A stretch of 64,000 nucleotides of DNA. Origin: Ulota crispa (lineage: Eukaryota; Streptophyta; Bryopsida; Orthotrichales; Orthotrichaceae). The stretch's first letter is position 1. Each line of letters begins with the position of its first letter. The notes beneath the pieces are model-generated. The model was not told where the DNA came from. It did no database searches and saw only the letters and a list, made by a program, of their open reading frames with translations. Below are positions 3,859 through 60,785 of the stretch, one piece after another. The DNA lies in NCBI GenBank assembly GCA_963920765.1, contig OY987245.1:17872727-17936726 (forward strand), written 5' to 3'. Position numbers and translations under genes: made by a program.

Positions 3859-4818
3859 TTAATCCCTAAATGCTCAAGGCCATTTTTTTCTCAATATACA
3901 CTCAAAACTACCGTTTTTCTCAAAAAATACTCTAAAATGCCATTTTCAAATATCTTGTTCTAAGAGAAATACCTTTCTTTTCTCTACAAGTCTAACTATA
4001 GGATCTTACATAAGACTTATGTAGAAAGCCATGGTGAAAATTTCTTGAAGTTTGACTGCACAAATTGAGAGATATGATTATCTAAAGTTATAACATATAG
4101 TTGTTTTTTACCTTTGCCCAAAATTTTCAAACCCCTTTGACCACATGTTATGTACATTATTTGCAACATGAATATTGTAGAGAATTGTCCAACATGCTCG
4201 ATATTGTGTTAGGCATATTCCACAAATTTCTAAGACCAACAAAGATGTGGAACACACCCTCCGTGGTTGGCATTGCAAACATGTGCTTCAAATGCACACT
4301 ATAATGGGATTTATTGCTTTGGATATACTTCAATGAAGGGTCATGCCTTCATTGGTTGCTTTGGGAGAAGTTAACCCCTGAACGGCCCATCGGCCATTTG
4401 TGGCTATATGTACAGCCATATTTGAGATGCTTTGAGGGCTTTCCAAAAAAATTTATGCACCCACCATTGTACAACCCTTCAATATGTATGGTTGTAACAC
4501 TTAATTTCCAACTAATTCAAACTTTTGAATATTGGTTGCGACCGTATTTGGTACCGTATCTCTAGAGCCCAAGGGCCCTTCAGGGGTTAATGAAAAATGG
4601 TTTGCCCAAGTTGCCCCTTGAACAAAAAAAACTCTTAAAACACTAATAACTTTGGAATAGTAACTTTAATTCCAATAAAAACTCCACTCATGCTTAGTCC
4701 TTGAAAAATTCTACTTTCAAGTTAAATTTCAGAGAAAATGATCAAAAATCCCAATAGGACAAGGTTGCCCAAAATCAATTTTATCCCCCATAGGAACAAT
4801 GGGCTTTTAGGGATTTGA
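3859..4818. mobile_element. TTAA-family element (subfamily 3), host of a nested copy
   Basis: The left end is TTAA followed by TCCCTAAATGCTCAAGGCC. The right end near 4800-4818 is degenerate (GGGCTTTTAGGG then TTGAA). It aligns over most of its length with 49560-50458, sharing for example the stretch around ATGCCTTCATTGGTTGC. It is interrupted at 4371-4590 by a smaller element with the same type of ends; the 49.5-kb relative lacks that insert. The left TTAA (3859-3862) is shared with the right end of an abutting element. Confidence 0.65.
4371..4590. mobile_element. Nested TTAA-family miniature element, 220 bp with target sites
   Basis: The ends are TTAA-CCCCTGAACGGCCC and GGGCCCTTCAGGGG-TTAA, a 14-bp terminal inverted repeat with one mismatch, inside a duplicated TTAA. 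It lies within the 3859-4818 element. The relative at about 50,216-50,236 runs straight through the site without an insert. No coding capacity. Confidence 0.85.
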
Positions 4819-4907
4819 ATTTGTTAAACAAATATTTGCACATATTAAAAAAGATGCTTTTGTATTACATACCTTTCAAATAGTTTTATACTAATTGTGT
4901 AATTCAT

Positions 4908-5837
4908 TTAACCCCTAAAGGACCAAAGTCCCCTCAGGGGACAAATGGGATTTTGGGCATGTACCTATGGCTAAACTACTTTGCGTGATTTTCTGAAACT
5001 TTTATGAAAGGCGAGGAATTCAAAGATCTACATGGGAATGTAATTTTTTCTTCAATCTAACATTTATTGAAGAAGTTATGCATAAAAATATGAAAAATGC
5101 TGCTCCCTGGGTAGCCAAAAACTTCTTTAAAATTTTCATTTTTTTCAAATAAAAATCTGAAATAGGTTCTTTAGATTTATATAGACGTGGGGAGCTTTGA
5201 ATCATTCAATTTTGATAGATGAGATGAAAGTTATGAGAAGTTTTAGTTTGCGGGTAGGTGTGGTTTTGCTATGAAAAAATAACTTATAAACTTCATTTTT
5301 GAATGCAAATTTAACATTTTTGCAAAAAAAACTATTGGAATGGGTGAAGATTGCTTGCTAGAACAATCTCATCATTGGGATTTTTGTGAATCAATTCCAT
5401 TGCAAGGTTATTAACAATGTAAGATTTTGTTCAATCTCAAACCTTCTTCTATTTACTGTTTTTTTTTAAGAATGAAAATTAAGTATTTTTTGTTTTGGTT
5501 TTTTTCCAAAGATTCTCAACTCAATTCCCCACCATAAAAAATAAACCTCAAAACTCCATGGTGCAAAAATTTTAAGTTAAAAAAGTTCAAAGTCAAATAA
5601 TCTAGTCGTGCAAGGTGCAAAAAAGCTTGTTTTTTACACTTTGAACACAAATATCTTGCAATCTGTGCAAACAAAGTTTTTAAGTTTTGAATAACACATT
5701 CTTATACAAGTCTAGTACAAGACGCTACAATTAAACATGCAAAAAGACCAATCTTCAAACTTTTTACTCTTTGCCATAGAAGTGGCAGTTTTGAATGTCT
5801 TTTGACAAAATAAAGGCCATGGTCCTGTAGGGGTTAA
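4908..5837. mobile_element. TTAA-family element (subfamily 1), 930 bp, piggyBac-like ends
   Basis: Complete copy: TTAA (4908-4911), CCCCTAAAGGACCA at the left, TGGTCCTGTAGGGG at the right, TTAA (5834-5837). The subterminal palindrome GTCCCCTCAGGGGAC follows the left end. Related copies lie at 35791-36735, 40267-41184 and 31845-33213, with partial copies at 6272 and 20668. The interior has only chance frames, so no transposase is encoded. A TTAA target with ends starting CCC fits the piggyBac superfamily; Kolobok also uses TTAA and is the alternative. Confidence 0.85.
5411..5414. other. Empty TTAA target site (matches filled site at 14890)
   Basis: Here the subfamily-1 interior reads GGTTATTAACAATGTAAG with a single TTAA. 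The equivalent position at 14,884-14,977 carries a 79-bp TTAA-bounded insert. This is direct evidence that TTAA is the target and is duplicated. Confidence 0.8.
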
Positions 5838-6271
5838 GTTTTACGCATTTTTACTCATATGATACTTGAGTTTGCAATATCATTATATTATAAAATCAAA
5901 AGTAACGCTCTTGAAAGAAATTATTTATTGCATCTATTATTCTGTAGATTTTCACCATATAAGACCAAGTTGTAGAAATTATAAATTAAAAGTCATTATT
6001 GATTGGAAATCGCTAATAGATATTCATACTTAAGTGTTCATTGATAAAGGTATCAAGAGCTATATTGTGGATGATTATTGTGGAATATCATTGTGAGATT
6101 AATCATAGAACAAGAAAACTGGGTGATATATTTTGAACTCCAAAATTTTGCATCAATTCATGGCTTTGCAACAATCAATTATATAATGCAGACACTTGAG
6201 TGTTTAAATGGTTACAAGCCTATAACATATTAGTGAATGATTTTGCTATTTTTTTCCAATATATATTTAAC

Positions 6272-6566
6272 TTAATCCCTAAAGCCCTGCCCCTTGAGGG
6301 ACAAATGGGATTTTGGGCAAGTGCCTGCAGCCTCAATTTTTATTTTGATTTTTTGAAATTTTTTTTGAAGATAGAAAAACACTTTAGCTTTTGAGGAATA
6401 TAATTTTTATTCTAATCAATGCCCAAAAGTAAAAGCTATGTCTAGATAAGCACAAATTTATGGAGATTGGGCAACAAACTTTTTTTTACAAAAACTTGAA
6501 TTTTTAAAATTTTCTTTCTTTCTCATAGGTTATAGTTCTGTCTACATCTAAAGTTTTGACTCATTC
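6272..6566. mobile_element. Truncated left part of a TTAA-family subfamily-1 relative
   Basis: It starts TTAA-TCCCTAAAGCCCTG, followed by the subterminal GCCCCTTGAGGGAC and ATGGGATTTTGGGCA. It follows the 40267 copy up to the CATTCCATTTGGA stretch (about 6564), where it is broken by a short-repeat tract rich in GAGCTTGTGAGC. The preceding 5838-6271 is AT-rich and holds nothing recognised. Confidence 0.6.
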
Positions 6567-7219
6567 CATTTGGATTAGCTACAGGGTTGCTAGCAGGCAA
6601 GCCTGTGAGCATGAGCTTGTGAGCTTGTGAGCCTATGAGCAAGAAACTTTTTAAGTAAATTTTGGAGTGAAGTACCTCTGACCGTGGAACTTTCATACAA
6701 ATATGAAATAATAAGTAGGTCATATTGTAAGGGAACTTGTGGAATATATGAAACAAATTGAACATCCTAATCAAATTTTTCAAGTTTGTTGTAGACTTAT
6801 ATAAAGCATATAATAATTAAAGAAACTAACAAATGCAAGAAAGAAATATGTAGCCATAAAACAGAAAAATGTTAAATTACAAAAAAACCATACACGGACC
6901 ATTTTGTGAATTATAGTCTCACATGTCTAAGTCTTAGTGGACTTACTAGATGAGTCATTAGTATTAGGCATGTTTGAAGATTGCTCTATGTCAAAAGCCA
7001 TTCCACCAATAAATTCAAAGATGGCTGTTCAAAGTATAAGTATCACAACAACATCTAGGTTTAAAGAATCATAAGCTTCAAACACCGAGGCCATTTGCTG
7101 TGCATACAAACATAGTGAAAAATTCTTATCTAGGCTAATTCAAAAGTCCTTAATAGTGTTGGTTAGAGAATTTGTCATTGTCATCAATCCACAATTACTA
7201 TTTAAATACATTCAATATA
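6567..7219. other. Short-repeat tract and AT-rich spacer
   Basis: 6590-6645 carries degenerate direct repeats of GAGC(T)TGTGA. A similar tract is at 14,615-14,690 and around 21,110-21,345, each at a break in another element, so it is probably the end of a further transposon family. The rest holds no supportable gene. Confidence 0.45.
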
Positions 7220-8134
7220 TTAACCCCTAAAATTCTTTTGTGTTTAGAGGCCCAAAATTGCTTCAAAATGCTAGTCCTCAACCAAGGTCAATAAGTTTCA
7301 CTTATTTTTTAACAAATCCAACCATAGGATCCTTTGGTTGACTTGCACAAGTATATTGTCCCAAAATCTTAGGATAGACATCCCCACCAATTGCAAGATC
7401 AATGTGCCTAAACTTCAAAATGTAGGCTTTTCTAGTCCTTCCAAAAGGTGAAGTTTTGTTTTTCAAACTTTTTAGAGAAAAACACGTATGTTGTATTTCT
7501 TGTGCAACTTTGGCAATATGTCAGAAAATGGGTTGAAAGCATATATATAAAAATTTAACCAAAAAAAATTTGGATTCATTTCTACAAAAATTGTAAAGTG
7601 AAAGGTATTGATGAATGAAAGATATTACTAATATGATAATAAGTTTTGGAAGAATTTGAAAATTGTTAATCCCAATGGTGAGAATGTTCTAACAAACAAT
7701 TAGTAACTTTCTTTCTCATTTTCATTTGTAATTTTTCAAAATTGAGAGTAAAAGATAACTTTATATGTTTTTTCTACCTTCTTCCTACCTCCATTGCCCG
7801 CAAGAGAAAATTCCTTTTAACTCTTACCTCATTATTTGGAATTGAGTGATTCAATTTTTCTTGAGTAGGTATCAATTTATACAATTCTATTAAAAATTAA
7901 AAAAAAAAAATTAGAATATAATTTTTGCTGCTCAGTTTGACATTGAAATTGAAAAAACCTTCTAACTTTTGCAATACTTATCCAAATGACTTGAAATAAA
8001 GCTTCACATGTAGATTATGATGAGTAGCATCCACCCTAGAAATTTTAGGAAAAATTTCCAAATTATGAAGTCAATAGAACTTGCCCGAGTTCTCATAAAG
8101 CCCAAAGTGGGCTCCTTGGGCCTTTAGGGGTTAA
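7220..8134. mobile_element. TTAA-family element (subfamily 4), 915 bp
   Basis: TTAA (7220-7223) is followed by CCCCTAAAATTC. The right end is GGGCCTTTAGGGG before TTAA (8131-8134). The inverted match is clear only over the outermost bases. No coding capacity. Confidence 0.75.
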
Positions 8135-11239: not shown

Positions 11240-12960
11240 ATTTGAGGATGGTTAGGCATACCCCAGGAGCTTATTTGAGAACAACTAAGCTTTTGGAAAT
11301 GTGCCTAGCCACTCCCAAATTTTCAACCATAACAAAATTAAAGATAGAGGATATATACTTGTGCACTTAAGAGAGGGTTGGGTACACCTCCAAGAGCTTA
11401 TTCTTGGAAGAATGAGGTCTTACGGGTGTGCCCAACCTCCCCTAATTTGCACAAATTCATGAAAGAGCATAATAAAAGTCATGAACTTTTGCAAAATGTT
11501 TGCAGTTGGGCACACCCTAGGAGCACATTTGTGGATGAAGGTGCTCCTAGGGGTGTACCTAACTGCAACCATTTTGCAAAAATTCATGAAAAAACATAAT
11601 ATAATTCATGAATTTTTGCTAAATGTTTGCAGTTGGGCACACCCCTGGGAGCACCTTTGTCCACAAAGGTACTCCCAAGGGTATAAAAAAATTAAAAAAT
11701 TAAAAAAAAATTTAACCCTTGGGAGTACATTTGTGCATGAAGGTGCTCCCAAGGGTGTGCCCAACTGCAAGCATTTTGCAAAAGTTCATGATTTTAATAT
11801 TTTTTCATGAATTTTTGCAAAATAGCTTTAGTTAGGTACACCCCTAGGAGCACCTTTGTTCACAAATGTGCTCCCAAGGGTGTGCCCAATTGCCGCCATT
11901 TTGCAAAAATTCATGACTTTTATTATGTTCTTGCATGAATTTTGCAAAATGGTTGAAGTTAGGCACACCCCTAGGAGCACCTTCATCCATGAATGTGCTC
12001 CCAAGGGTGTGCCCAATTGTCACCATTTTGCAAAAAATCATGAATTGTATTGAATTTTTTCATGAATTTTTGCAAAATGGTGGCAATTGGGCACATCCAT
12101 GGGAGCACATTCTTCCAAGAAGGTGCTCCTAGGGGTGTGCCCAAATGCAACCAATTTGCAGAAATTCATGAGTTATTTTTAAATTTTTCATGAAGTTTGC
12201 AAAATGGTTGTAGTTTGGCACAACCCTAGGAGCACCTTTGTTCAAGAATGTGCTCCCATGGGTGTGCCAAATTGCAACCATTTTGCAAAAATTCATGAAA
12301 AAATAAATAATCTAAGCCATGAATTTGTGCAAATTGGAGGTGGTCGTGCACACCCGTAGGAGCACATTCTTGGACAAAGGTGCTCCTAGGGGAATGCCCA
12401 AGTGCCTCCAATTTTGCAACCATAAGCCAATAAATAATATAAGATATGTATTTGTGCATTTTGGAGATGATTGGGGACACCCTTAGGAGCTCATTCTTGG
12501 ACTACAAATTAGCTCCTATGGCTGTGCCTAGCCACCCCCAAGTTTTCCACCATCCAAAAAAAATGATAAATGGAGGTTATTTGTGCACGTTGGAGATGGC
12601 TGGGCATACCTCAAGAGGTCATTATTCCAAAAATGAGGTCTTGGGGTGTGTCCAATCACCCCCAATTTCTCAACCACAACAATTAATGAAGATAAAGGGC
12701 ATTTTTTGTGCACTTTGGAGATGGTTGGCAAACCACAAGGTGCTTAGATTTAGACAACTAAGCTTCTAGAGGTGCACCAGGCCATTTTGCGGCTTAAGTA
12801 GCAAATGAAGTACATCACAAAAGGCATTCATTTTAGCAATTTTGGAGGTGGCCAATCACTCATTAAAGAAATTTGAAGGTGGCCAAACATATCTCTAGGA
12901 GCTTAGTTAGGGATGTCTAGGGTCTTGGTGGTTTGCTGAGGCACCTCCATTACACTATTT
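11240..12960. repeat. Tandem array of about 14 near-palindromic hairpin units
   Basis: The array has a period of about 120-130 bp. Each unit reads roughly: ATGAATTTTTGCAAAATGG, TTGCAGTTGGGCACACCC, CTAGGAGCACCTTTGT, then the inverted copy of all three. Approximate units are 11240-11336, 11357-11455, 11479-11589, 11606-11690, 11700-11790, 11806-11915, 11934-12041, 12060-12170, 12189-12298, 12320-12425, 12448-12555, 12580-12680, 12708-12800 and 12840-12950. Central units are most alike and the outer ones most diverged. The fourth and fifth are disturbed by an A-rich insertion. Because units are palindromic, mirrored open frames appear on both strands; these are not genes. Confidence 0.85.
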
Positions 12961-14889: not shown

Positions 14890-14968
14890 TTAACCCCTAA
14901 ATGCCCATGACACTAGAGTCTGGTATTTTTAACATTGAATTCTGGTACCATGGGCATTTAGGGGTTAA
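14890..14968. mobile_element. 79-bp TTAA-family micro-element
   Basis: TTAA, then CCCCTAAATGCCCATG, about 39 bp of interior, CATGGGCATTTAGGGG and TTAA. The terminal inverted repeat is perfect over 16 bp. The same host sequence at 5401-5424 has a single TTAA and no insert, so the boundary and the 4-bp duplication are proven within this window. It is among the smallest mobile-looking units here, and the internal sequence between the repeats is dispensable. Confidence 0.9.
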
Positions 14969-16041: not shown

Positions 16042-16111
16042 TTAGGGCTTAGGGGTTAAACATCAAAAAGTTAATACAACAAACTTCATAAAGAGCTAGG
16101 TTGTTTCATTT

Positions 16112-16774: not shown

Positions 16775-17584
16775 TGATAAATTATATAGAATTTTTTTTG
16801 CAAAATTTATTTAATACTAAAATTTATAATCTAAACTTCCAAAAAATACATGTATAAAGTAAATGAACAAATATGAAAATAACTCAATGATTTTATTGTA
16901 TAAAACCAAAATACAATGAAAATTGAGTCTTCAAAAAAATCTAGGATTATTTTAAAAATATTATTTTTAATTGCTATTTGACAAAAATCTAAAGAAAAAA
17001 TTTGCTACCCACTACTTCAGTGTCTTTATCAAGCTTCATATTGTATCAACAACAATTTCACCAGCAAGACAACAAACTTTACCTAAATACATAATTTAAT
17101 CAAAATTAGCATTAAACTTTCTTTCAGTCATTTTACCAAGGAGGGCATTTTTTGTGTCGGTATGAGCACAAAGAATTTTTCAATTTAGGCAATCACTTTA
17201 ACCCCTTAACCCCTAAATGTCCAAGGCCTTTTTGAACTTCTTGGCATTTTCAGGAAAGTGAATAATCAACCAACCTTTTCATAAATCTCATTCAGTTTCT
17301 TAAACTATAACCGTACAAAGTTAAACTTGACATGTTAGAGATTACATGCACTAGTAGAAAATTTGATAGAAAATCAACAAAATTTCAACTCAAAATTGTT
17401 GATTTCATATGTTTATTTGGTCAAGTTGATTCAGGTACTTTTCAACAAGAGTTTGTTGATTTTCTGTTGTTTCTTTGTTGTTTTCTGTTAATTTTTGCTT
17501 ATTTTTCAATTAATTTTTGTTGTTAATTTATTTTTTTCATCATTTTTTTTTTCATAATAATTTTGTGATGCTAAAAATTTAAAA

Positions 17585-17737
17585 AAGAAAAGTCTTAGCC
17601 GGCTGGAGGCTAGCTATGACTGTAGCGGCCCGCCAAGGGCACTGGCTGCAAAGCGTCGAGGCTGGGGGTTGAACCCAGACCTTGTGCCTCCCACCGGTGG
17701 CCCTTCCCTCAAGTTCCTTGCCACTACACCACTCATC
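17585..17737 (-). ncRNA. tRNA-derived Pol III unit (SINE-like) inside the CACTA element
   Basis: On the minus strand, an A box-like TAGTGGCAAGG (17716-17726) is followed about 50 bases later by a B box GGTTCAACCCC (17665-17675). The B box sits in an intact T-arm, stem CTGGG/CCCAG with loop TTCAACC. A TTTTCTTTTTT run (near 17580-17592) would end Pol III transcription. The segment is GC-rich inside a very AT-rich element. Acceptor and anticodon stems of a real tRNA are not apparent, so a SINE head or captured tRNA-related RNA is more likely than a functional tRNA. Confidence 0.65.
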
Positions 17738-19539
17738 ACCTCATGTGTGTGTAGGAGGATATGAAAAGTGTATTTAAACATTACATAAGGTTACTTTTAA
17801 TTACTTTGCAAAGTCAGTAGACTTTGAAGCCTATTTCGGTCTTGTAGAGGACTTTTTTTCAAAAAGCTCAAACATACAAAAAGTTGGTTAATGTAGTCTA
17901 CTTTCACCTCCAACAATTTTTTTTTAGATTTTAGATCTTTAATAAAAAGTTATGGGCAAAAATCAAAGAAGGTGTTCAGAAATTTTTAAAAATTATTTAT
18001 TTCCACCCCTTTGATTTTTGATTATAAATTTTGATTGAAAAGCATAAATCTCAAAAAAAATGTTGCAAGTGAGAATCAGCTTCATTTTTTAATTTTTTTT
18101 AGCTTTTATTTTTCTTGAAAACAAAACTTTTATTAGATAAAAGTAGCATCCATAGTTTGCTAGCTTCAAAAAACATCAAATTTTGAATAGTTATAGAATT
18201 AAAAAGTTGTAATCATACAATCAAAATTTCAAAGTATCCAAAAAATTAAAAAAGATTCTATAATATTTTGAAGATTTTTGAATCTTTTATAAAGATTCCA
18301 AAAATATTTTGTATGATTTAAAATTTTTTGTTGATGTGATTCACAAAAGAAGGGGAAACATTATAAATGCTCTTTAGTTGTTTCAAAATATTAAATTTAT
18401 CCCTTAATGATTTAAAATATCAAAAATACTCTTGTTTTTTGTTAGAGTATCAACTCTACCCCTAGTATTTTGAGATAATATAAAAAATGCTCTTTTGTTT
18501 TGAAATAGCAAATACACTTGTGTGTTATTTGAAATATAAAAATCACCTTTCATTTTATGTAAGAACATCAATTAAACTACACCCTTAGTTATTTTTGAAG
18601 CTATATCAAGTTCCCATAATTCACTTTTTCTATTGCAATTTTTTGTAACTACTAGAATGACAATGAAAGTTACTAAAAATAGAGGCAATTTAATTGCAAA
18701 CTCAATCTTATAGTCAAGTTGTTCAAACTCTTTGTAGAATTTTTGCCTATAGATTTATCATTGCAAAAACTAATGCATCAACTGCATAGTGATATTTGTA
18801 TTTTTAATATAATATTTAAAATACAATTGGACGAAAAAGGCACAGAAAAACTAGAGGAATTTATGATATTTACAAAAACTAAGAATAAAGATTAATTGGC
18901 ATTTTTACACTAAACCAAAGGTAGATTTTTTTTTTCAAACTACTCAAGGATTTATTCATTAATTTAAAATAGTTGAGGAGCATTTTTAATATTTTCCCAG
19001 TATATTATAGCTAGGCACTATTGATATTTTTGCAAAAAGCCAAGGGTATTTTTGATACTCTTAAACTTTGAGGGACATATATGATTTTATGAAAGAATTG
19101 AGGGGCATTTTTTATACTTTTTCATAAAGAAATTTTGGTATTTAAAACAGCAAATGTTGTACTTTTTATATAAAATTTTGTTGAACTAATGAAATTGTGT
19201 TCAAAAGTGTCCAAATCAACAAAAAAATGTTGACACTTCGTTGTTTTGGCCATGTTTTTAGTAGACTTTGAAGGCTACTAATGTTAAACCATATATACCA
19301 AATTGTGAAAAATGAAGAAAAAAGCCACACTCAAAATTCTAAAAGATTCTAATTTTCTTGAAAACTTCTTTTATTTTGAAAAACTTCAAAATATTTTCAT
19401 GTAGTCCACAAATATTCTAGAAAGATTTCAAAAACAACCCAAATTATTCTATTAGTTTTTTATGGAAAATATTCTAAAGTATTTTAATGATTTATAAAAA
19501 GATTCTAAAACAACTCTAATTGAGTCTAAGAGATTCTAT

Positions 19540-20000
19540 TTTTATAAAGATTTTGAAGTCTTTTAACAAATTACATAATCAAAGATTTCAAAAAGAATCT
19601 TGAAGATTCCAAAGAAGATTGTTGAGATTCCAAAGAAGATTATTGAGATTCCAAAAACATTCTTAAAGATTCTTTAAAACATGCAAAAGATTCTCAAAGA
19701 TTCTTTAAAAAATCTCAAAGATGATCAAAGATTCTCAATTTTTTGAAAAGATTCTCCAAAGATTCTCATAGATTCTTAAAGATTTCAAAAAGATTCTTAA
19801 ATATTCCCAAAATATTCTCAAAGATTCCCAAAGATTCTCAAAGATTCTTTAAAACCTAAAAAGATTCTCAATGATTATTTAAAAAATCTCAAATATTCTC
19901 AAAGATTCTTAATTTTTTGAAAAGATTCTCAAATATTCTCATAAATTCTTAAAGATTCCCAAAAGATTCTCAAAGATTTCAAAATAGATTTTGAAAGATT
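19540..20000. repeat. Degenerate AAAGATTCTC direct-repeat tract
   Basis: Dozens of copies of AAGATTCTCAAAGATTCT-like steps in one orientation, with variable spacing of about 10-22 bp. The tract fills the right interior of the CACTA element and may be an expanded subterminal repeat or a simple slippage product. Confidence 0.75.
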
Positions 20001-20667
20001 CTAAAATTTCTGTTGATTTGGACAGTGGTGTCCAAATCAACATAACGTAGGTAGTTTTTTACAGAATTTTGTTAAATTAGTCAATTAGCGTGTGCAAGTG
20101 CCCAAATCAACAAGAAACTATTGGATTTCTGTTGTTTTGGACGGAGTTTTCTACTAGTGATGGAAAAAGAAAACACAACAATATCATTTATAGCTTGATA
20201 GATTATAATGTTTAAACATGAGGGTGTTAAAACTGCAAAAGTGACTTGAAGTTTTTTAATCCTCATTTCACATGTCAAATCTAAAAAGTTGGTCATCAAA
20301 AAAATATGAGGTTTAAGGTCATTACATGTTTTACCTCAACCAAATTACGGCTTTCAAAATCTACTCCTTGTGTTTTTTTTAAATGGATTTCTAATGCAAA
20401 TTTTCTCCAGGCTTTGGTGTATTTGAGGCTCATTTTCAAGATCTTCCAACACTAGAATACTCAAGATTGCAGTGGACACCCTTGTACAAAATATTGAATA
20501 GAAAAATCATGAACATTCATTTTCAAAATCAGATTTTTGCTATTGAAAATAAACTTCAAAACAATCTTGTGTTCCTTAGAAAATACCAATAATAGCGATT
20601 TGATAAAAATTTATTTGTCTTCAAAGTTTTGCAAACACCCAAATTGGGTGCCTTGGGCATTTAGGGG

Positions 20668-24106: not shown

Positions 24107-24760
24107 TTAACCCCTCACCGCTCAAAGGGCCCAAATCGGGCCCCTCCAAATTTTATTTCAAGATGCACAACCTTTCTAGAAGATTTTTTTAGTGATTATT
24201 ATTAATTTTAAACTCTTATTAAAGTATAATTTCAACATTAGGAGTCTGATTTTGAAAATGAAATAAAGTGATTTGTCTATTCAAGATTTTTTGCAAGGGG
24301 TGTCCATTGCAAATCTTCACTTTCTAGTTTTGAAGGCTCTTGAAATTGAGCCTCAAGTACACTAGAATTTGGAGAAAAAATCACATTAAAAATTTAATTT
24401 AAAAAATTGTAGAATAGATTTTGAGAAGCCGTAAATTGATTGGGGTTATGCATGTTATACTTTACATACTCATATTTTTTTGGTACCCTCAGTTTTAGGT
24501 TTGAGATGCAAAAAGAGGATTGAAAGGCTTCAAATCACTTTTGCAATTTGAACACCCTCATGATCAAACATTATAATCTTTCAATCCTTAAATGATATTG
24601 TTGTGATTTCTTTTCCTATGTGATCTATAAAATGTCTACTTTGAACTTGTACGGTTGTGCTTCAGAGAAATTTGATAAGATTGATCAAAATGCCGACAAT
24701 TTGTTCACTTTCAAGCAAATTCTAAGATACTCCAAACTACCATGGGTGGTGAGGGGTTAA
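24107..24760. mobile_element. TTAA-family element (subfamily 2), 654 bp
   Basis: TTAA-CCCCTCACCGCTC at the left and GGGTGGTGAGGGG-TTAA at the right. The outer bases CCCCTCACC pair with GGTGAGGGG. It aligns with 37548-38193 and with the split element 17206-20671. The site equivalent to the CACTA insertion (about 24,626) is empty. Confidence 0.85.
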
Positions 24761-31844: not shown

Positions 31845-33213
31845 TTGAACCCTGAAAGGACCAATTGTCCCCTTGAGAGAGTCCGGGGACAAGCAATACT
31901 TTCACACTTTGGGCATATATTTTGGATATGCTATTTTTGTAATTTTTTGAAACTTATATTGAAGCTGGGGAATTCAAAGACCAACAAGGCATTTGATTTT
32001 TTTTGTCATTCCAACATTTGACAAAGAAGTGAAAAATGAAATTATGAAAATTTGGGGACAATTGCCCATTTGGGCAACCTAAAAAACTTCTTAAAAATTC
32101 AAGTTTTTTAAAAACAAAAACTCAAAATTGATTCTTTAAATATTTTTATACATGGAGAGCTTTGAATCATTCAATTTTGATAGATGAGATGAAAGTTATG
32201 AGGAGTTTTTGTTTGCAAGCAATTATGGATTCTCTACTCTAAAATAAACTTTGAAGTCCTTTATTTTACTCAATTTTTAATATTTTGGAAAAAAAATTAA
32301 AAGGAAGGAAGTAGATTGTTTATCACAACATTATTACTGTTGAGATTTGCATTTTTTATTGAGAGCAACTAGGTGGATACCTCCCAATTGCTACGCAAAC
32401 ACCCCCTACAGCCAAATCTATTAAATTTGAGAGTATCATTATGTTGAAATATGAAATAAAATCAAAGCAATACTTTAGCATACATCCGCGTCTACAAGGG
32501 TTGCAAACAAACAACAAATTTGTCTCTTTTGTGACATGGTTAGGAGTTAAACAAGTTGTTCCCTTCATTTATTGGTTTAACTCTTGACCTTGTCACAAAT
32601 AAGGCAAATTTGTTGTAGGTATGTTTGCAGCGCTTGTAAATGCAAATGTATGCTACAGTATTGCTTTGATTTTATTTCACATTTCAACATAATAATAATC
32701 TCGATTTTAGTAGGTATATCTGTGGGGGTGTCCGCATAGCAACTAGGGGGTGTCCGCCTAGTCACTCCCTTTTCATTTCAACAATTAAATTCTTAACAAT
32801 TTTATGTTTTGACTTATTCTCTACTTTTTTTTTACTTACTATTTTTTTCCCATGTGTTGTATAGTTCTAAACTTCTAATTGATTTGAAAATTCTCCCACA
32901 TATACCTAACTTGATCTCCTACATGGAAAAATAAAAGCTTAACTTTGGGTAAAGCAATTTTTTTCATGTAAAGGTGGTTAAAGGCTTCTAAAGTTTACTA
33001 ATAGCAAGGAAAAAAACCTTTTTTCCTTCATTTTAGATATAAACATCTCCCTTCTCTCCATCTAATGACCTGATTTTTTCCCACAAGTACCTCTTCTAGC
33101 ATAAGCCAAGATCCTACAATTAGATTTCCAAAAAATAAAACCCACCTTCTTACTCATCCTCTAAAAGTGCAATAATTTTGGCACAAAAAAGGGCTTGGTC
33201 CTTTAGGGGTTAA
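31845..33213. mobile_element. TTAA-family subfamily-1 element carrying a nested foldback
   Basis: The left end is degenerate (TTGA-ACCCTGAAAGGACCA) with TGTCCCCTTGAG after it. The right end is GGTCCTTTAGGGG-TTAA (33210-33213). Removing the nested 409-bp element and one 8-bp flank leaves about 952 bp, close to 930 and 945 bp for other copies. Confidence 0.75.
32361..32769. mobile_element. Second copy of the hAT-like foldback, 409 bp
   Basis: Ends GAGAGCAACTAGGTGGATAC and GTCCGCCTAGTCACTCCC. The flanks TTTTTATT and TTTTCATT are an 8-bp duplication with one mismatch. It matches 27039-27443 in its outer parts and in ATGTTGAAATATGAAATAAA. Confidence 0.75.
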
Positions 33214-35790: not shown

Positions 35791-36735
35791 TTAACCCCTA
35801 AAGAACCAACTGTCCCCTTGGGAGACAAATGGACCTCGGGCATGTACCTATGACTAAACCAATTTTTATAAATTATTGAGACTTTTGAGGTTGGCGGGAA
35901 ATTCAAAGATGTATGTGCACATCTAATTTTTTCTTCATTCCAACATTTATTGAAGAAGTTATGCATGAATGTTTGAAAAATAGGGGAAGGTGGGAAGGAG
36001 GGCAATCCGGGCAGCCCAAAAAACTTCTTGAACAATTGCATTTACAAAAAAAAATTGGAAATTTATTCTTCAAATTTTTATGTATGTAGAAAGATTTGAA
36101 TCATTCAATTTTGACTGGTGAGTGAGAAGTTTTAGTTTGCGGGTAGGTATGGAACTCCCAAACCTCCATTCCTTTTGCCCCTTGTTAAATTTGGTGCTTT
36201 GATTTTTTATTTGACTTTTTTTTCCAAGTTGTAGTAGATTAAGGTTCCTTGGTTTTCACAATTTGGATCAAAGTAATTCATATTTCTCAATTTTACATAA
36301 ATCCTCCAATCTTGCCTAGTGTATATGCAAATTTCATGGCCTTACGGCATTGCAAGATTTTACAAAGTATGATTTACACCTCCAATTCATTTGAAAATTC
36401 TCTCACACTTACCTAACTTGATCTTCTACATGGAAAAATAAACCTCAACTTTGCGTATACTAAGTTTTTTGATATAGGAGAGGTCAAAGGCTTCTGAAAC
36501 ATTTGGGCAGCAGGGAAAAAAACTTTTTTGTTTCACTTTAGATATCAATATCTCACTTCTCTACATCTAGAATGAGCTGATTTATTTCCTACAAGTACCT
36601 CGCATAGTCTAGGGCAAAATCCTACAATTGAATTTCCCAAAAAAACTTTTTTTCCTACCCTTGTACTCATTCCCCCAAAAGTGGCAGTTTTCAATGATTT
36701 TCACATAAAAATAAGGTTGGTCCTTTAGGGGTTAA
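35791..36735. mobile_element. TTAA-family element (subfamily 1), 945 bp
   Basis: TTAA-CCCCTAAAGAACCAACTG at the left, with TGTCCCCTTGGGAGACA as the subterminal palindrome. GGTCCTTTAGGGG-TTAA at the right (36732-36735). Uninterrupted copy, aligned with 4908-5837. Confidence 0.85.
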
Positions 36736-37547: not shown

Positions 37548-38193
37548 TTAACCCCTAAATCCTAAGCGACCAGATTTGGGTCTTTAAAGATGAATAAAAC
37601 CTTATCAAATCATTATTTTCAGTATTTTTTTTTTTTCAATATAAGTTTGTTTTGAAGTCTACTTTCAACACTAAAAATCTGATTTTGAAGATGAAAGTTG
37701 ATGATTTTTTATTCAAGATTTTGTACAAGGGTGTCCATTGCAATCTTGAGTTAACTTTCTAGTGTCGGAAGATCTTGAAAATGAGCCTCAAATACACTAG
37801 AGCTTGGATAAAAGTCCACATTAGAAATCCATTTAAGAAAAATGCAGGAGTAGATTTTTAAAACCATAAATTGACTAGAGTTAGACATGTAATGACCTTA
37901 AACCTCATATTTTGTTGGTGACCAACTTTTAGATTTGACATGTGAAATGAGGATTAGAAGACTTTAAGTCATTTTTGAGTTTTAACACCCTCATATTCAA
38001 ACGTTATAATCTTTCAAACTATAAATGATATTGTTGTGTTTTCTTTTTCCATATAATCTAAAACATGTTTTGTTTAAATTTGTACGGTTACAATTCAAAA
38101 AAACTTGATGAATTTTTTGAAAAGGTTGATTGATTATTCAATTTCATGGGAAGTCCAAGAAGCTCAGATAGGGCTTGGGCATTTAGGAGTTAA
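37548..38193. mobile_element. TTAA-family element (subfamily 2), 646 bp
   Basis: TTAA-CCCCTAAATCCTAAGC at the left and GCTTGGGCATTTAGGAG-TTAA at the right (38190-38193). It carries the empty CACTA site as a single CAT at 38050-38052 within TTTTCCATATAATC. Confidence 0.8.
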
Positions 38194-40054: not shown

Positions 40055-41237
40055 AACACCATATTTGTTAATTTGGAAAAAACGGTACATTTTGGGTCTT
40101 TCAAATTTTGAGGTGAAAGTTTTAGGTGATCACCTAAAATCGAGCTTAGCGTTTTTTTTTTTTACATGTGTCCTCACCTAAGAGGAGGAATTTGCAAGGG
40201 AAAATATCTTAGTGGCTCCCACTGAATCTGATACCTTTGAATCTGGTTTAAGGTAACTTTTTGGGTTCAACCCCAAAAGGACCATTTGTCCATTCAACGC
40301 AAATGAGATTTTGGGCAGGTACCTACGGCCTCAATTTTTGTCCTGATTTTTTGAAACTTTTTTTGAAAATAGGAAAATACGTTAGCTTTTGGGGAATCTA
40401 ATTTTTATTCCAATTGTTGCTAGGGAGAAAAAGTTATGCCCAAATAAGCATTAATTTGGGGACTCCAGGCAGCAAAAAATTCTTATAAAAACTTGAAAAA
40501 AGAATTTTTTTTTTTTTTTTTTTTTTTTCTCATAGACTACATGTTTATCTACATCTGAAGCTTTGGTTCATTCCATTTGGACTAGTTATGAGAAAGTTAT
40601 GGACAGTCTTGTTTTTCAAGCAATTCAAGCGTCTTCTTGAAAAAATAACTTATAAACTTCATCATTTATTCAAAAAGAATTAGTTGAGAGTGTGAAATTT
40701 GCTTTTTAGAACAATCTCACCATTGGGATTATTGCGTTTCAATTCCATTGCAGGGTTATTAGCAATTTAAGTTTTTGTTCAATCTCATACCTTCTTCTAC
40801 CAAATGTTTTTTTATAAAGAATGAAAATTAATTAATTTTGTTGTTTTTTTTTCCCAAGATTACCAACTCAACTTCCCACCATGCCAAAATAGAATTCCAA
40901 ACTCTGTGGTGCAAAAATTTCAAGTTAAAAAAGTTCAAATTCAAATAATCTAATTAGGCAAGATGCAAAAAAGCTATTTTTTACACTTTAAATGCATATA
41001 TCTTCCAATCTGTGCGGTCAAAGTTCTTGAGTTTTTTATGACACACTCCTATACTAGTTTAGTACATGATCCTACGGTCAAATATGTAAAAAGATTAATT
41101 TTCAAACTTTTTACTTTTTGCCATAGAAGTGACAATTTTGAGTGTCTTTTGACAAAAGAAAGGCCATGATCCTTTAGGGGTTAAGGTGGAGTACAAAATA
41201 GGACACCTATTTTTCCCAAATTAACGAATATGGTGTT
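40055..41237. mobile_element. AACACC MITE split by a TTAA-family element
   Basis: The ends AACACCATATTTGTTAATTT and AAATTAACGAATATGGTGTT match 15772-16041. The interior block TTTTGGGTT is broken at 40267 and resumes as AAGGTGGAGTACAAAAT at 41183. Deleting the insert plus one target copy leaves 269 bp, against 270 bp in the intact copy. Confidence 0.85.
40267..41184. mobile_element. TTAA-family element (subfamily 1), 918 bp, nested
   Basis: TCAA (worn TTAA, 40267-40270) then CCCCAAAAGGACCATTTGTC; right end GATCCTTTAGGGG-TTAA (41181-41184). The uninterrupted host at about 15,980 reads GGGTTTAAGGTGG, so the target was TTAA. A long T run is at about 40,507-40,528. Confidence 0.85.
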
Positions 41238-42474: not shown

Positions 42475-42621
42475 CCGCTCAGAAGACAACAGCAACTTTT
42501 GTTGCTACACTGAAGTTCTTTCAAGTCAACCTAGCTCAGGAAGGGAGCACTGCCGAGGCAGAGCTGACACAATTCAGAGCTGCATCAATTTAGTCCAAGC
42601 TAGGATATTGCTGTTACTGAA

Positions 42622-45600: not shown

Positions 45601-48600
45601 AGTCCCTCCTGCGTCCCTTCCATGTAAGCCTTTTCTCACCAGAAAACCAAAACTTCACAGAAGCTTTAGAATGAGAGTAAATACAATATTGCATTGCTTC
45701 CTGAAAACCCTTGGAATTTAGAGTCTGTTTGTGCTCAGTCAGAGGCGGGTGTGGCCAACATTGGAGTTTTTAACTTTCTTTCATGCAACTCTTAATCGAT
45801 ATATACATATACACACACATGTGGGCGAATTGTGTGTTTAACAAGGGAATGAAAAACTTCAAAAATGGGTCATTAGGCTGAAATCTTTTGTTGCTACCGT
45901 GTGTAATGGCACGAACTGTTCAGCATTGTTTTGACTTGGAACATGATAACCTTGGTTGACCAGTTTGGAGCCAAATTCGAATTCAAATCAACATCATAAC
46001 CCAGAACAGAGCCACCTCGCTGTTGCGCCTGCTGCAATCGCTGTCGAATGCTCATTACGTGGGTGATACCATCGACGTGTCATTCAACATGGACAGCGCT
46101 GTGGACAGCCAAACTCTAAACGTTGTGAACTCGTTCGCCTGGCCTCACGGGAAGAAGATCGTGCGGCGTCGAATCATCCAAGGAGGTCTCATCCGAGCTG
46201 TGTGCGAGAGCTGGTAAGAAAAAAGGGTCAGAAAAAAGGGTCACACTTTTCCTTCAAAAAAAAATTGGCCAATTTGTTCTTAAACCCAACTTGGTAATCC
46301 AGGGCCAACTGAATGAAAGAAATTCTGTTTGCTGGTCAGAACAGGACACGGAATGACGTTCTCAAAGTGTTTGGTATCCACTACCTCATTGCATTCCTGG
46401 GGTAGTTTGCTGAAATTGAGTACAGCTGATTTTTCATTTAAATGACGAAGCTTTAATATACGATTCTTGTTCATTTTTACAGGTATCCTGCATCTGATGA
46501 TGATTTCGGACTGTTGCTTGAGGACGACATTGAAGTATCACCCTTTTACTACATGTGGCTCAAGTATGCCCTCCTGCAATACCATTACAATCCCAACGTC
46601 AACCTTCCGGAGCTCAACGCCATTGCGCTCTACACTCCTCGAGTGGTGGAGGTGGTGAAGGAGAGGCCGCACTGGAATGCCACGGAGTTCTTCAGCGATG
46701 TGCATCCCAACACTCCATACTTGCACCAATTGCCATGCAGCTGGGGTGCATTGTTCATGCCCAAGAAGTGGCGAGAGTTTTACAAGTACATGGGCATGCG
46801 ATACACCGAGGATGCCAAATCCAACCCCGTCAAGATTCCCAAGTCACGAACCAATGGATGGCAGGTCAGTCCTCTCTCACACTTTCAGCCTTTCGCCATT
46901 CAACTAGTCTCTGGAGATCAAATTTTCTTCATCACTCCTTTTACTATATCCTCTACCTGGAGTGTCACACATTGACAGAGACTCTTAATCACGACTCTGT
47001 CGATCGTGTGATGGTGATTGTATCCACATGCTGTTTTGGTTATGGAGGTTGAGCAAAGCGTATTGGTGGGATAATGACAGGCATCGTGGAAGAAGTTCCT
47101 GATTGATATGATGTACTTGCGAGGACACGTCACCTTATATCCCAACTTTCCCAACCAGACGAGCTTCAGCACAAACCACATGGAGCCTGGGGCTCACATT
47201 GGGGCGGCCGCCAACAAACTCGCCCACAACCGAATTGACTTCGTCGTCCCTCTCTTGCAGGTTTGTATTATTTCATACCTTCAGCAACCTCTTTTTTTTC
47301 CAAGTTCATGCAAGCCCTTAGAGGTTGGATATGGTCAAAACACCGAAATTTTTGCACGTGTTGAATGGTAGAGGATACATGTAACAATAAACGCCATATT
47401 CGTTAATTCGGGAAGAAACCCTGATTTTGGGAGTTTAAGGTGACCACCTTAAACCGAGCTCGAGGAGTAAGGTGAGTACAACTCGGGAATCTGGTTTTCC
47501 CAATTTAATGAATATGGCGTTAATACCTTAGATAAAATGGCTGTATGACGGCCTAAACACAAACTTCAGGCCGGTCCCAGTTTCTGGACACCTTTCTGAG
47601 AATATAAATCACTGTTTTTGCACATGAATTCTGCCAATTTTGATAAAATTGACGTTAGGTACGTCTTTAAGCATTTGACACAACATGTAGGAGTATCATT
47701 TTTGAGAGATCATTTTAGTATGAGATTTGAAATCTCAAAGTGAGAGGTTTTAGACCACTATGAAGGGACTGTTGACAACCAAATTTTGTATTTCACTAGT
47801 GCTTAAACTATTTGCTAATGGAAGTATTGCTGACCCTGCAGGAAGATTTTGTCCCACTGTTGCCGAACGGTAAGCTTCCGGAAGCTAAAAAACTGCCAAT
47901 TATCAATCTTTTCAATCATGTGGCGTCCCTTCGAGAACTGAAGACGGCAGGGGCGATGCTCCAGCAAGACGTTTTCAACTGCAGCACCACGCACGTGGTG
48001 GTGGTGGATGACAGAACAGGGGAGCCATTTTCATGTCAGCAATTCTAACTGGAACATTTGAAATGTACAGCGTTTTGTGATGCGCGCCTCGACAATAACA
48101 CTGGTCACAGCCACCATGCATTTGTTGCATGTTGTGCCATTTTAACGCTACAGCATGCTCATATGAGTCTTATCCCATTCACGTACTGTATAGCAATTAT
48201 ATTCCTTCATAGTTACTGCAATGCCATTTCGCACATGAGCACTAACTAGGTAGTTAGCTTATATTATTCCCAGTGAAACCGAGGGTGGGTGATGAGCCTC
48301 TGGCCAGTGACATGTTGTACTATCGGTGGAGAAAACATGTCTCCTCGCCAGGCATTCTGGTTTTTGAAGAGATGAACATTCTTGACACTTCAGGATGCAC
48401 ATTAGATAGTGTCGCAGAAACAGCTAGAATGATAGGATTGGAGCCAAAGGAATTGCAGCTCTTGCACTTTCCTTCGTTAGCTTTTGTTTCACTGAGACCT
48501 GTGTCGTCTAAACGGTGTGGTGAACATCATGTATTTATATTTATTCATTTATTTACTGAAATATCTACTTCTGAATCTGCATACGAAGCCCACACTGGTG

Positions 48601-48698
48601 TAAGCATTTTGTGCCTATTCTATGCAACAAAAATAGTGCAACTTGGAAGTATTCCTTTCAACTTTCATACATATCCAAGGTATTTTGAGAATCCTTAA
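42622..48698 (+). CDS. Two-module GT-A-type glycosyltransferase, type II membrane protein
   Basis: Ten exons joined by GT-AG introns keep one frame of 1,090 codons: 42622-43130, 43622-43934, 44182-44534, 44830-45247, 45374-45623, 45964-46213, 46483-46864, 47081-47260, 47842-48034, 48274-48698. Residues 71-93 form one membrane helix after a 70-residue N-terminal tail, the usual Golgi type II layout. The first GT-A-like module (about 198-470) has the metal-binding-type motif YLIDDD at 282-287. The second (about 615-900) has LLLEDD at 708-713 followed by IEVSPFYY. The second half resembles plant proteins annotated as transferring glycosyl groups (Arabidopsis AT5G12260 type, from memory). The donor sugar and acceptor are unknown. 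The start has GAAATGG context. The last ~50 residues after SLRPVSSKR are untypical, so the 3' end may differ. Intron 8 carries a MITE. Confidence 0.85.
47391..47520. mobile_element. AACACC-type MITE within intron 8, 130 bp
   Basis: ACGCCATATTCGTTAATTCG at the left and CAATTTAATGAATATGGCGT at the right, flanked by perfect TAA (47388-47390 and 47521-47523). This is the cleanest target duplication in the family and points to the PIF/Harbinger group. It is about half the normal length, by an internal deletion. The splice sites of the intron are untouched. Confidence 0.85.
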
Positions 48699-57176: not shown

Positions 57177-58061
57177 TTAATTCCTAAGGCACGAAATTTT
57201 TGTGTTTAAATTTTTTTGAGTCCATGCTAAAAGCAAAGTTTTAAATCTTTTAAAATTTGTTTTTTTTGGAGAAGTAATGGTTTGAAATTAACTTCATTGT
57301 TCAATTTGAATGTCTTCCATATTATATTCCAATTGATTTTGGTGCAAGTTAAATTGTAAGCATGCCGGCTACGTACTAAAAAGTGTGTTAAATAGTGTCA
57401 CTAAAGAGCCTATGAGAAGTTGCCACATTGGAAAAACAATCAACAAGTTGAAAATAAGGTCAAGTTCTCTCCCCTTGAGAGGTGAGGGCCTCTATATCAA
57501 AAGTTCATCATTTAGTAAAATCCACATATATTTTTGTGCTAATTTCACTTTGAATGTCTCTCTTATATGAATAAGAATCCATCCACCATTGGATTCTCTT
57601 TATTCATCATGGTATTGGTCAATAATTGGAGCTAGATTTATCTTTGTGTTAAGTGGTATCTCATAAATTGTTGCATTGAAGGCTCATTTATGTAATTGTA
57701 ATCACGGATTTGGAAGGAAATTCATTAGTTTTGAATTATCAATAATAAGTACTAAATCATCATAAGTGGTTGTCATCCAATTTTGTACCCAAAAGTTTCT
57801 GTTTTGACAAAACAAGTTGTAGGGGTTACAGAAAAAACAAAGAATTTTGTACTCATCCACATTCAATCTCATATATCTTAATATCCATGTGACTTTTTGG
57901 AATTTTTTGGTAGCACCATTTAGAAGCCTCGATGTTCAAAACCCTAAGGTTACAAATTTGTTTCAATTTTAGAACAATGATCTTATAAACAGAGTTTGAA
58001 AACTTTCAAAATGCCTATCCGGAAGATGAAAAAAAAGGAGCCTTGGGAATTTAGGGGTTAA
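57177..58061. mobile_element. TTAA-family element, 885 bp, worn left end
   Basis: Left TTAA-TTCCTAAGGC, right AGCCTTGGGAATTTAGGGG-TTAA (58058-58061). The left CCCC has been lost. 56,703-57,176 before it is unassigned apart from a TTAACCCC at 57,136-57,143. Confidence 0.6.
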
Positions 58062-60336
58062 GGAAAAAGGTAAAAATTTGCCCATATTGTGAAATTGTTC
58101 ATTTTTACCTAACTTAACCATGGTAAACAAATGGAGGCTCTCTGAAACCTGCTGTATTGTTGTAAATTCAAATTTTCCAAATTCAACTTATCATGGTGCA
58201 TTTTTGGATTGTAAGGTAGGAGGCTCAAAAACCTTCCAAGCTCTAAAACCGCTCACCCTCTGAAATGAACTCTTTTTGTACATGTTTTTTTCCATAGATT
58301 TCCAAAATACGCAAATTGGATGCATTTGAGAAGGTGGACAATTTTAGAGCCCTTTACCATTTTTATTTCAAAACTTCATAAATAATTCCACAAAGCTCCA
58401 AAAAATATGAAATAACTTGGGTTAGATACCAATTCTTCTTGTCTTTCAAACAAAATTTACTGAAAAATATTTCAAGAAGTTCCACCTCCCCAAAATACAG
58501 TTTCAGCCTTTAGATGATCGGTTTATGAGCCTCCTACCTTACCTTCTTCACCGAGTTGAAACTTGTGAAAATTTTCACCTTGTTTCCACTCGAAGGAAAA
58601 GAAGGGATGAGGGGAAAGATGGAGGCGGACCTTGTGTTTACTAAAAAAATGCTCATCTCGGAATTGCTGTCGACTGGTGAGGGACGCAGTGCGGGGAGGG
58701 GCGCAAGCATTCGTGCGGAATTACTGGACCAGGGGCGGTGATTCCACCAAATCGGATTCCTTTGAAGCAGAGATCCATTCGGCTCGCCACCAAACGTACG
58801 GTCAGTGGCCCTGTAGGATTCACGAACTGCACTCTGATTTCCGGCCTATGTTATTGCACATTTTCACAGCAGTGCCATGCCTACAGTGGGTGTCAAACCT
58901 TTGATTTTTGGTGATTTTTGGATAACTTCCATTCACTCAAAGTTACGGTGTGGTTTCTCATTCAACAATTTACAATGTTGTCATCATTTCAAACTTCACA
59001 AATCACTTGATAACTCTAATTGCTTTCCTGTGCATAATTTCTTCACATAAAGTTAAAATATGATATTACAGAGGTAATTGTGATTTTAGTTGTATGATTA
59101 GTAATAACAAGGTTAGCTTACTAGAAGAGAGTTACAAGATCACTTGATAATTTTTTATAAACAAAGAACATAACTAGTTTGAGTTATCACTCACCTCTAA
59201 AAGTGGGTGATAAAGTTATTAGGCTTGATAACTTGCAAAAATGATTGAGTTATGGGGTGAACCTTACTAGAGTTATTGGGTCAAAAACATAAAAGTTTGA
59301 CACTCACTAATGGAGCCCAGTAGCACAACGCCATGGTATGCTGCACACAGGCTGGGGTTAGATGGTATACCGCTGTGGGGCCAGGGTGGAAAACTTCAAA
59401 TCTTTTCACAAACACAAGTAACAGTAATAACCTGCCCAGTATGTTGGAGTTGATCAATTTATCCTCAGTGATTCCAGACAAAAACAGGATCTATGAGTGC
59501 AATTAAGAATTCAACCTTCTCAAACGTAATCTCGTAATGGTAAATATCTAGATTCTTACATTTTCTGCCGTGGCGTGTGAAAAGTTGGATTTTTCACCCT
59601 AACCCCACACAAAGACATGTCATCAAACCTCAAAGGTTAGGCCACCACACCAAAATACACCGGCTTTTTGTAAAATAAAAGCGACCACATTTACTGTTGT
59701 GTATAAAAAGTAAATTCTTTAAATGTTTACGCCCAATTTTTTGGTTCGTTTCAAATTGACACTTTTGACTATTTACAAACCAATGTCTCCAACCTCTCAC
59801 CCTTGAATGGTGAAGAGATTATCTTTAGTAGAACAACATATAAAACCTTGACCAAAGTGATTATCCCCTGAATTTTCCAAAAGTACAATTTTTACTTCTT
59901 TCATTTGTTCCAAACCGGCTGTTTTGGCCTGTGTGACCATGGCATTAGCCGGCATGTCATCTGATCCCAGTCATAAGCTTAGCAGGCCACCAGTCTGAAA
60001 GGGCGAGTTTGATAACAAATTTCATGTCCACTTTCTGAGAGACGGATTCCGGATCAGAAGATGAGCACTAAGACTCCCAGTCTCTCCCGCCAATCACTGC
60101 AACTTTCTATCGATCACACTCGCACTTTCTGCAAATCATTGCGAGTTTTTTAATATTTTCTTCGGAAGTCGGAGGCAGTGATTGAAAAGAGGACCCACCG
60201 AATGGGCTGAACACTTGACTGGCACACCCATTTCTAGACATGAAAGCCAATTGTAGAAAGTCGAGATTCTATATAGACCATCTGATTCCGTTTTCTATTA
60301 ATAAAACGTGACAGACAGAATCAAAGTTCCTCTTAC
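58062..60336. repeat. Mixed repeats and unassigned sequence
   Basis: 58,310-58,560 is a copy of 34735-34990. 58,560-58,910 and 59,980-60,330 are small higher-GC islands without an assignable product. 59,620-59,950 is a single copy of the 51360 repeat unit. No gene is supported. Confidence 0.45.
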
Positions 60337-60785
60337 TACACTGAATATTGCGTTTAGGTTGCCCCACACTAATTCTCATATCTTACACTTTTACTGCTCA
60401 CTAATTAATGCAAAAAAATCAGTTTTAAAGGGCCTTGCAACCGCTATAATGCTGCTGCAGAAAACACTAGCAAGGTTCAAGTTGTAAACCATGTGAAATT
60501 TAAGCATGGTCAACCATTAGTGTGGGGCAACCTAAATGCAATATTAACCCCTGAGCACCCAGAGTTATTTTTGGATTTAGGAGAAAATGGGGGGTTTAAT
60601 GGCCATCACAGTTTGGAAAATTACATTCAAAAAAAGTGACCATAGGATTTGAAAAAGGACTACATTCTCTACTGATGGGGACCAACCATGGCTGTTTTCA
60701 CCATACAAATTTTTTTTTAAAATGAAACAAAGTTTTGGGCCTCATTGACAGTATACTATCGATGGGGCGCTTAAGGGTTAAGTGT
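60337..60785. mobile_element. TACACTAAATATT-family MITE interrupted near its right end
   Basis: Left TACACTGAATATTGCGTTTA then GGTTGCCCCACACTAA; right arm TTAGTGTGGGGCAACCTAAA then TGCAATAT, split by the TTAA element that follows, with GTGTA after it. Confidence 0.7.
60544..60781. mobile_element. TTAA-family miniature element, 238 bp
   Basis: TTAA-CCCCTGAGCACCCAGAG at the left and GGGGCGCTTAAGGG-TTAA at the right (60778-60781). Inserted in the terminal repeat of a MITE: GCAATA-TTAA before it and TTAA-GTGTA after it rebuild the expected GCAATATTTAGTGTA with one base changed. Confidence 0.75.

What the first reader, a model, noticed from the sequence alone, without database searches (positions are those of the whole stretch)
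3859..60781. Large family of TTAA-targeted elements with CCCCTAAA...TTTAGGGG ends in a plant genome
About 14 elements of 79 to 950 bp share TTAA on both sides and ends starting CCCCT(A/G/C)A: 3859, 4371, 4908, 7220, 14890, 17206, 24107, 31845, 35791, 37548, 40267, 49560, 57177, 60544. There are at least four subfamilies whose interiors differ, so several lineages mobilised by one enzyme type are likely. A TTAA target plus CCC-starting ends is piggyBac chemistry (Kolobok also uses TTAA). As far as I know, piggyBac-type elements are scarcely described in land plants. No transposase is in the window.
Basis: partly seen in the sequence, partly recalled or inferred. Interest (0 to 1): 0.88.

Follow-up and report, generated by a model that had tools for sequence, protein, structure and literature searches.

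The report
piggyBac transposons swarm a moss genome
A moss chromosome is peppered with short mobile DNA elements that insert at TTAA, and the same genome holds larger relatives carrying a piggyBac-type transposase, an enzyme family known mainly from animals and hardly described in land plants.

Summary
Genome-wide, TTAACCCCTNANNGMCC occurs 20,665 times, the reversed control 2; 3,038 of 3,614 perfect 16-base ends follow TTAA. Of 5 clean related empty sites, 3 have relatives with a single TTAA. The host is most likely a moss. The genome has 120 matches to the piggyBac transposase family PF13843 (best E 1.3e-73), 110 of them with stops, none in the window; 14 control genomes have none. Ten of these loci were fetched: 6 are enclosed by TTAA-CCC ends of the same kind, 5.0-6.3 kb apart; 1 has only its right end; 3 had too little flank. 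An open transposase frame matches piggyBac in sequence, catalytic triad and predicted fold. These are piggyBac-superfamily MITEs and their larger, mostly broken relatives in a land plant. Conserved upstream coding segments without a Pfam match hint at a plant-specific architecture. Activity is not shown.

The parts
2936..3858 (.). MITE, 923 bp, about-930 class; TTAA both sides
   Evidence: ends and homology
4375..4586 (.). MITE, 212 bp; TTAA both sides, CCCCTGAA ends
4912..5833 (.). MITE, 922 bp, about-930 class; TTAA both sides
7224..8130 (.). MITE, 907 bp; TTAA both sides
14894..14964 (.). MITE, 71 bp class; TTAA both sides
16055..16055 (.). unpaired right end, followed by TTAA
17210..20667 (.). 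element of the about-640 class, probably split by other sequence; TTAA / TGAA
   Evidence: homology at 17210-17348 and from 20160
24111..24756 (.). MITE, 646 bp, CCCCTCACCG ends; TTAA both sides
31850..33209 (.). MITE of the about-930 class with about 410 bp of other sequence inside; TGAA / TTAA
   Evidence: homology 31850-32360 and 32769-33209
35795..36731 (.). MITE, 937 bp, about-930 class; TTAA both sides
37552..38189 (.). MITE, 638 bp, about-640 class; TTAA both sides
40271..41180 (.). MITE, 910 bp; TCAA / TTAA
49564..50453 (.). probable element, 890 bp, weak ends; TTAA / TTTA
58057..58057 (.). right end, followed by TTAA; left end near 57177 poor
60548..60777 (.). MITE, 230 bp, CCCCTGAGCACCC / CCCTTAAGCGCCCC ends; TTAA both sides

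Best explanation
The elements are non-autonomous piggyBac-superfamily transposons (MITEs) in a moss. Larger piggyBac elements of 5.0-6.3 kb in the same genome encode, or once encoded, a transposase with a DDD catalytic core that works on short ends of the form CCC(C/T)TNANNG(A/C)C. By the mechanism established for piggyBac (recalled), the enzyme cuts at the ends, excises through hairpins made from the TTAA overhang, restores the old site and inserts into a new TTAA, which is thereby duplicated. The short elements keep only the ends and are moved in trans. Shown here: TTAA target and duplication, shared end motif, transposase family, triad and predicted fold. Inferred: mobilisation in trans, hairpin chemistry, seamless excision, any present activity.
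For: TTAA: 3,038 of 3,614 perfect ends genome-wide; single TTAA in relatives of 3 of 5 clean empty sites. Enzyme: 120 PF13843 matches, 14 control genomes none. Shared ends: 6 of 10 fetched transposase loci enclosed by TTAA/CCC ends (4 with exact TTAA on both sides, C and L033 with one mutated copy); 10 of 13 listed ends fit CCCYTNANNGMC. Right ends of the related loci D, L031 and L033 are alike up to the TTAA and look unrelated beyond it. The subtype end CCCCTCAACGCCCC of element C also bounds short MITE units. L030 frame: PDB piggyBat 2.6e-24 and piggyBac 7.6e-20 with three aligned aspartates; model pLDDT 84, best structural matches piggyBac and piggyBat, TM on query 0.75-0.77, Tn5 next at 0.36.
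Against: MITE ends are so common that a random pseudo-locus in MITE-rich stretches finds an end pair scoring 19 or more in 94 of 400 trials, 20 or more in 64 of 400; in that script B scored 20, C 21, but A only 15 because its CTCC end fails the filter. L030, L032 and L034 gave no end pair; L031 lacks a proper left end. Of 142 TTAA-flanked ends in the sample only 69 fit CCCYTNANNGMC strictly, 98 loosely. No transposase element with the commonest MITE end, CCCCTAAAGG, was found among the ten. A TA duplication within TTAA cannot be told from a TTAA duplication by these data. 110 of 120 transposase matches carry stops.
Confidence: 0.93

Rival explanations
1. The MITEs belong to another superfamily that uses TTAA (Kolobok, or Sola3, both recalled), and the piggyBac elements merely live in the same genome.
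For: TTAA is shared with those superfamilies; no transposase element with the exact commonest MITE end was found among the ten loci fetched.
Against: The transposase elements carry the same end motif next to TTAA, and element C shares a 14-base end with short MITE units. No search for Kolobok or Sola transposases was run: I had no profile.
Confidence: 0.04
2. Tc1/mariner-like or Harbinger-like MITEs with a preference for TTAA: the true duplication is TA (ends ACCCCT...AGGGGT).
For: The palindromic TTAA makes a TA duplication look the same in filled and empty sites. Tc1-like elements are known in the moss Physcomitrella (PMC4054914, passages).
Against: Those moss elements end in CAGT, not CCC; the enzyme found between such ends is PF13843.
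Confidence: 0.02
3. The PF13843 matches are host genes derived from old transposases, not the source of the MITEs.
For: Ten of 120 matches have no stop inside, and L030 and L034 showed no transposon ends in the flank fetched.
Against: 120 matches spread over contigs C1 to C11, 110 with stops, and six of ten fetched loci with transposon ends, among them the stop-free L033, fit transposons better.
Confidence: 0.01

Closest known systems
piggyBac superfamily (Trichoplusia ni piggyBac, PDB 6x67; bat piggyBat, PDB 9c0f)
   Same: TTAA target, ends beginning CCC, PF13843 transposase with DDD triad, same predicted fold.
   Different: Land-plant host; elements of 5.0-6.3 kb against about 2.5 kb (recalled); the transposase domain starts 2.3-3.3 kb from the left end; conserved upstream coding segments without a Pfam match; about 22% identity to the solved proteins.
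Insect piggyBac-type MITEs (iMITEdb, PMC5199201, passages)
   Same: Short non-autonomous elements with TTAA duplications.
   Different: Moss host; over 20,000 recognisable ends in 275 Mb.
Tc1-like elements of Physcomitrella (PMC4054914, passages)
   Same: A DNA transposon family long known from animals and fungi and later found in a moss.
   Different: TA duplication, CAGT ends, DD34E enzyme.
PiggyBac copies in the fern Ceratopteris (PMC6890710, one table passage)
   Same: PiggyBac label in a land plant: 1,230 copies, 122,417 bp.
   Different: There a line in an automated repeat table; no ends or transposase in the passage I saw.

Membership tests
piggyBac superfamily | TTAA target duplicated on insertion | tested here: met
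   3,038 of 3,614 perfect ends follow TTAA; single TTAA in relatives of 3 of 5 clean empty sites, TTGA or ATAA/CTAA in the other 2. A TA duplication inside TTAA is not separately excluded.
piggyBac superfamily | short inverted ends beginning CCC | tested here: met
piggyBac superfamily | PF13843 transposase inside elements with such ends | tested here: met
   120 matches; 6 of 10 fetched loci enclosed by end pairs, 1 right end only, 3 unresolved; see the control. The transposase elements do not carry the commonest MITE end.
piggyBac superfamily | DDD catalytic triad (positions 268, 346, 447 in T. ni, recalled) | tested here: met
   L030 has D at all three aligned positions; L033, L034 and L029 show the same motifs; L031 has N at the third
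piggyBac superfamily | fold of the catalytic domain | tested here: met
   model pLDDT 84, best matches 6x67 and 9c0f
piggyBac superfamily | C-terminal cysteine-rich domain | tested here: inconclusive
   Cys-rich frame after the domain in element A; Pfam gives only a sub-threshold B-box-like match
piggyBac superfamily | seamless excision through TTAA hairpins | not testable with these tools
   needs an assay
Kolobok | TTAA target | tested here: met
   as above
Kolobok | Kolobok-type transposase in elements with these ends | not tested
   no profile at hand; the six enclosed loci hold PF13843
Tc1/mariner | CAGT-type ends as in the described moss members | tested here: not met
   ends are CCC(C/T)T against CAGT

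The most novel reading that the evidence does not exclude
Mosses, perhaps with other green lineages, carry an old clade of piggyBac transposons of their own whose coding capacity includes an extra N-terminal module: a conserved segment (..QIAKLLGW..) in several copies and, in one lineage, a predicted small beta-barrel. They have lived in mosses long enough to split into at least two lineages and to seed one of the genome's largest MITE populations.
Probability: 0.4. Interest if true: 0.8.

Novelty: new member of a known kind. Interest (0 to 1): 0.68.

Why it matters
A 2022 review of land-plant transposons counts six TIR superfamilies in plants and does not mention piggyBac (PMC9033089, passages). 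A moss genome with 120 transposase matches and over 20,000 MITE ends brings piggyBac into land plants on a large scale. It makes two questions testable: is the family old in the green lineage or acquired by transfer, and do native plant piggyBac enzymes still move their MITEs? The latter would be of practical use, since piggyBac excision is seamless in animals (recalled).

Tried and rejected
Loose pairing and nearest-pair listing produced spurious long pairs such as 5954-8130; one search replaced them. With about 2 kb of flank, the first six transposase loci gave no convincing end pair; in the loci resolved later the domain starts 2.3-3.3 kb from the left end. The model of the full-length environmental relative P0125 is poor overall (pLDDT 55); only a small beta-barrel at residues 131-191 is suggested, and it was not searched against structures. 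PMC10619864 matched 'piggybac' through 'piggybacking' in the one use that I saw (2 occurrences, passages). The tree cannot date the family: the environmental sequences mixed with the moss ones have unknown hosts.

Literature searches behind 'hardly described in land plants' (open-licence PubMed Central, listings only unless stated): 0 papers; 20 of 313 listed; 2; 2; 15 of 51 listed; 12 of 52 listed; 1; 5 listed of 6; 12 of 2,734 listed. Against it: a fern repeat table lists PiggyBac (PMC6890710, passage), and one review names PiggyBac among plant superfamilies with a general citation (PMC10794571, passages). Repbase and subscription papers were not searched.
Full report
HOST. The window is C4:17872727-17936726 of an unnamed assembly of 274.8 Mb in 157 contigs. 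Its glycosyltransferase gene (about 42.6-48.7 kb) is most like Ceratodon purpureus among named proteins (68% identity over 75% of the query), then Sphagnum and Marchantia (58 and 56%; best 120 of 379 hits listed). The host is most likely a moss; the species is unknown.

INVENTORY. TTAACCCCTNA occurs 20 times against 0.24 expected. The elements collected (37, of which 3 are from the window, so 34 others) cover 8,673 bp of the window by homology. Size classes near 71, 640, 720 and 930 bp recur in 20 stretches of C1, which were chosen because they hold the pattern.

TARGET. In 288 kb of local sequence, most of it chosen for the pattern, 131 of 216 CCCCTNA sites are preceded by TTAA and the other flanks are scattered. 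Genome-wide, CCCCTAAAGGACCAAG occurs 3,614 times (reversed control 0), 3,038 of them after TTAA. TTAACCCCTNANNGMCC occurs 20,665 times (control 2), and TTAACCCCTAAA followed by TTAA within 20-50 bases 2,342 times (control 27). Joined flanks of the 37 elements gave spanning relatives for 7 and clean ungapped ones for 5. For three (L015, L020, L023) there are relatives with a single TTAA, besides others with TTGA; for one (L009) TTGA, the relative being the interior of the same element; for one (L017) ATAA or CTAA. This fits duplication of TTAA, but a TA duplication inside TTAA would look alike.

ENZYME. PF13843 gives 120 matches, all above the cut-off, best E 1.3e-73; 116 of 528 candidates were scored, so this is a lower bound, and a few rows are pieces of one locus. 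The 14 control genomes have none. 110 of 120 carry at least one stop. Flanks of 10 loci were fetched. Six are enclosed by paired ends: A C4:4126485-4132486 (CTCCTAAGCGCCCC / CCCCTAAGCACCC, 6002 bp), B C3:13130266-13135284 (CCCCTCATCGCC / CCCTTCATTGCC, 5019 bp), C C1:27657026-27663360 (CCCTTCAACGCCCC / CCCCTCAACGCCCC, right TTAA mutated, 6335 bp); D C8:446270-451847 (CCCTTTAGGGACC / CCCTTTAATGACC, 5578 bp), E C2:15046199-15051292 (CCCTTGACCGCCC / CCCTTCACCGCC, 5094 bp); and the L033 locus C8:19568198-19573845 (CCCATTAAGGATC / CCCTTTAAGGACC, right TTAA mutated, 5648 bp). L031 has its right end, but its left terminus is rearranged. L030, L032 and L034 are unresolved with about 2 kb of flank. Ten of the 13 listed ends match CCCYTNANNGMC exactly.

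HOW STRONG IS THE LINK. MITE ends are common, so pairs also arise around random pseudo-loci in MITE-rich stretches: score 19 or more in 94 of 400, 20 or more in 64 of 400. In the same script B scored 20, C 21 and A 15, because A's CTCC end fails its filter; D and E scored 19 and 20 under a slightly looser filter. End pairs alone are therefore moderate evidence. Stronger is that the right ends of the related loci D, L031 and L033 are alike up to the TTAA and look unrelated beyond it. The 14-base end of element C also bounds units of 80 bp (TTAA included) such as C1:1424892-1424971; TTAACCCCTMARCGCCCC occurs 320 times, control 0. Against: none of the ten transposase loci shows the commonest MITE end, CCCCTAAAGG, and only 69 of 142 TTAA-flanked ends in the sample fit CCCYTNANNGMC strictly (98 loosely).

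PROTEIN. The uninterrupted L030 frame (389 aa) matches piggyBat 9c0f (2.6e-24) and piggyBac 6x67 (7.6e-20), with D at the three catalytic positions. The L031 frame matches 6x67 at 4.1e-20 but has N at the third position. The L030 model (pLDDT 84, pTM 0.84) finds 6x67 and 9c0f first, TM on the query 0.75-0.77, then Tn5 at 0.36. Searches with one member of each of two lineages gave 14 and 36 relatives; the only one with an organism's name is a fish piggyBac-derived protein at 28% identity. Only relatives sharing short exact words are found, so the absence of named plant proteins is weak evidence. In a tree of 43 proteins (5 moss, 38 others of at least 380 aa), the five moss proteins and 13 environmental ones form a 100/100 group split into two well-supported parts, with moss proteins in both.

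EXTRA SEGMENTS. Upstream of the transposase domain a segment like ..RYLFYRQIAKLLGW.. is conserved among A, B, C, D, E, L030, L031 and L033 and has no Pfam match over a cut-off. It was not found in L032 or L034. L031 and L033 also carry a segment matching the N-terminal part of environmental relatives P0123 and P0125, where a small beta-barrel is predicted with modest confidence. Whether these segments belong to the transposase or to a second protein is open.

VERDICT. piggyBac-superfamily MITEs and their larger, mostly broken relatives in a moss: a known kind of element in a host group where I found it hardly described. Present activity is not shown.

Noticed in passing
window 3859-3862; L023 5294-5297; L024 7864-7867: Neighbouring end structures of this kind share a single TTAA (right end of one, left end of the next), as if later insertions used the TTAA made by earlier ones.
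   Followed up: no
L013 9062-9782, L018 6123-6762: The 720-bp and some 640-bp elements match themselves in inverted orientation, so they look like long hairpins (alignments).
   Followed up: no
L029, L030, L031, L033, L035, L036, L040, L042: Conserved coding segments upstream of the piggyBac domain without a Pfam match over a cut-off, one with a predicted beta-barrel in environmental relatives.
   Followed up: partly
window 42604-48698: Multi-exon glycosyltransferase gene, best named match Ceratodon purpureus.
   Followed up: partly
window 11453-12419: Tandem array with a period of about 127 bp that also forms inverted repeats.
   Followed up: no
window 21356-21926: Long hairpin: 191-bp arms, 93% complementary, 189 bp apart; not one of the TTAA-CCC elements listed.
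   Followed up: no
window 19582-20007: Degenerate tandem repeats built on AAAGATTCTC, lying inside the split element 17210-20667.
   Followed up: no
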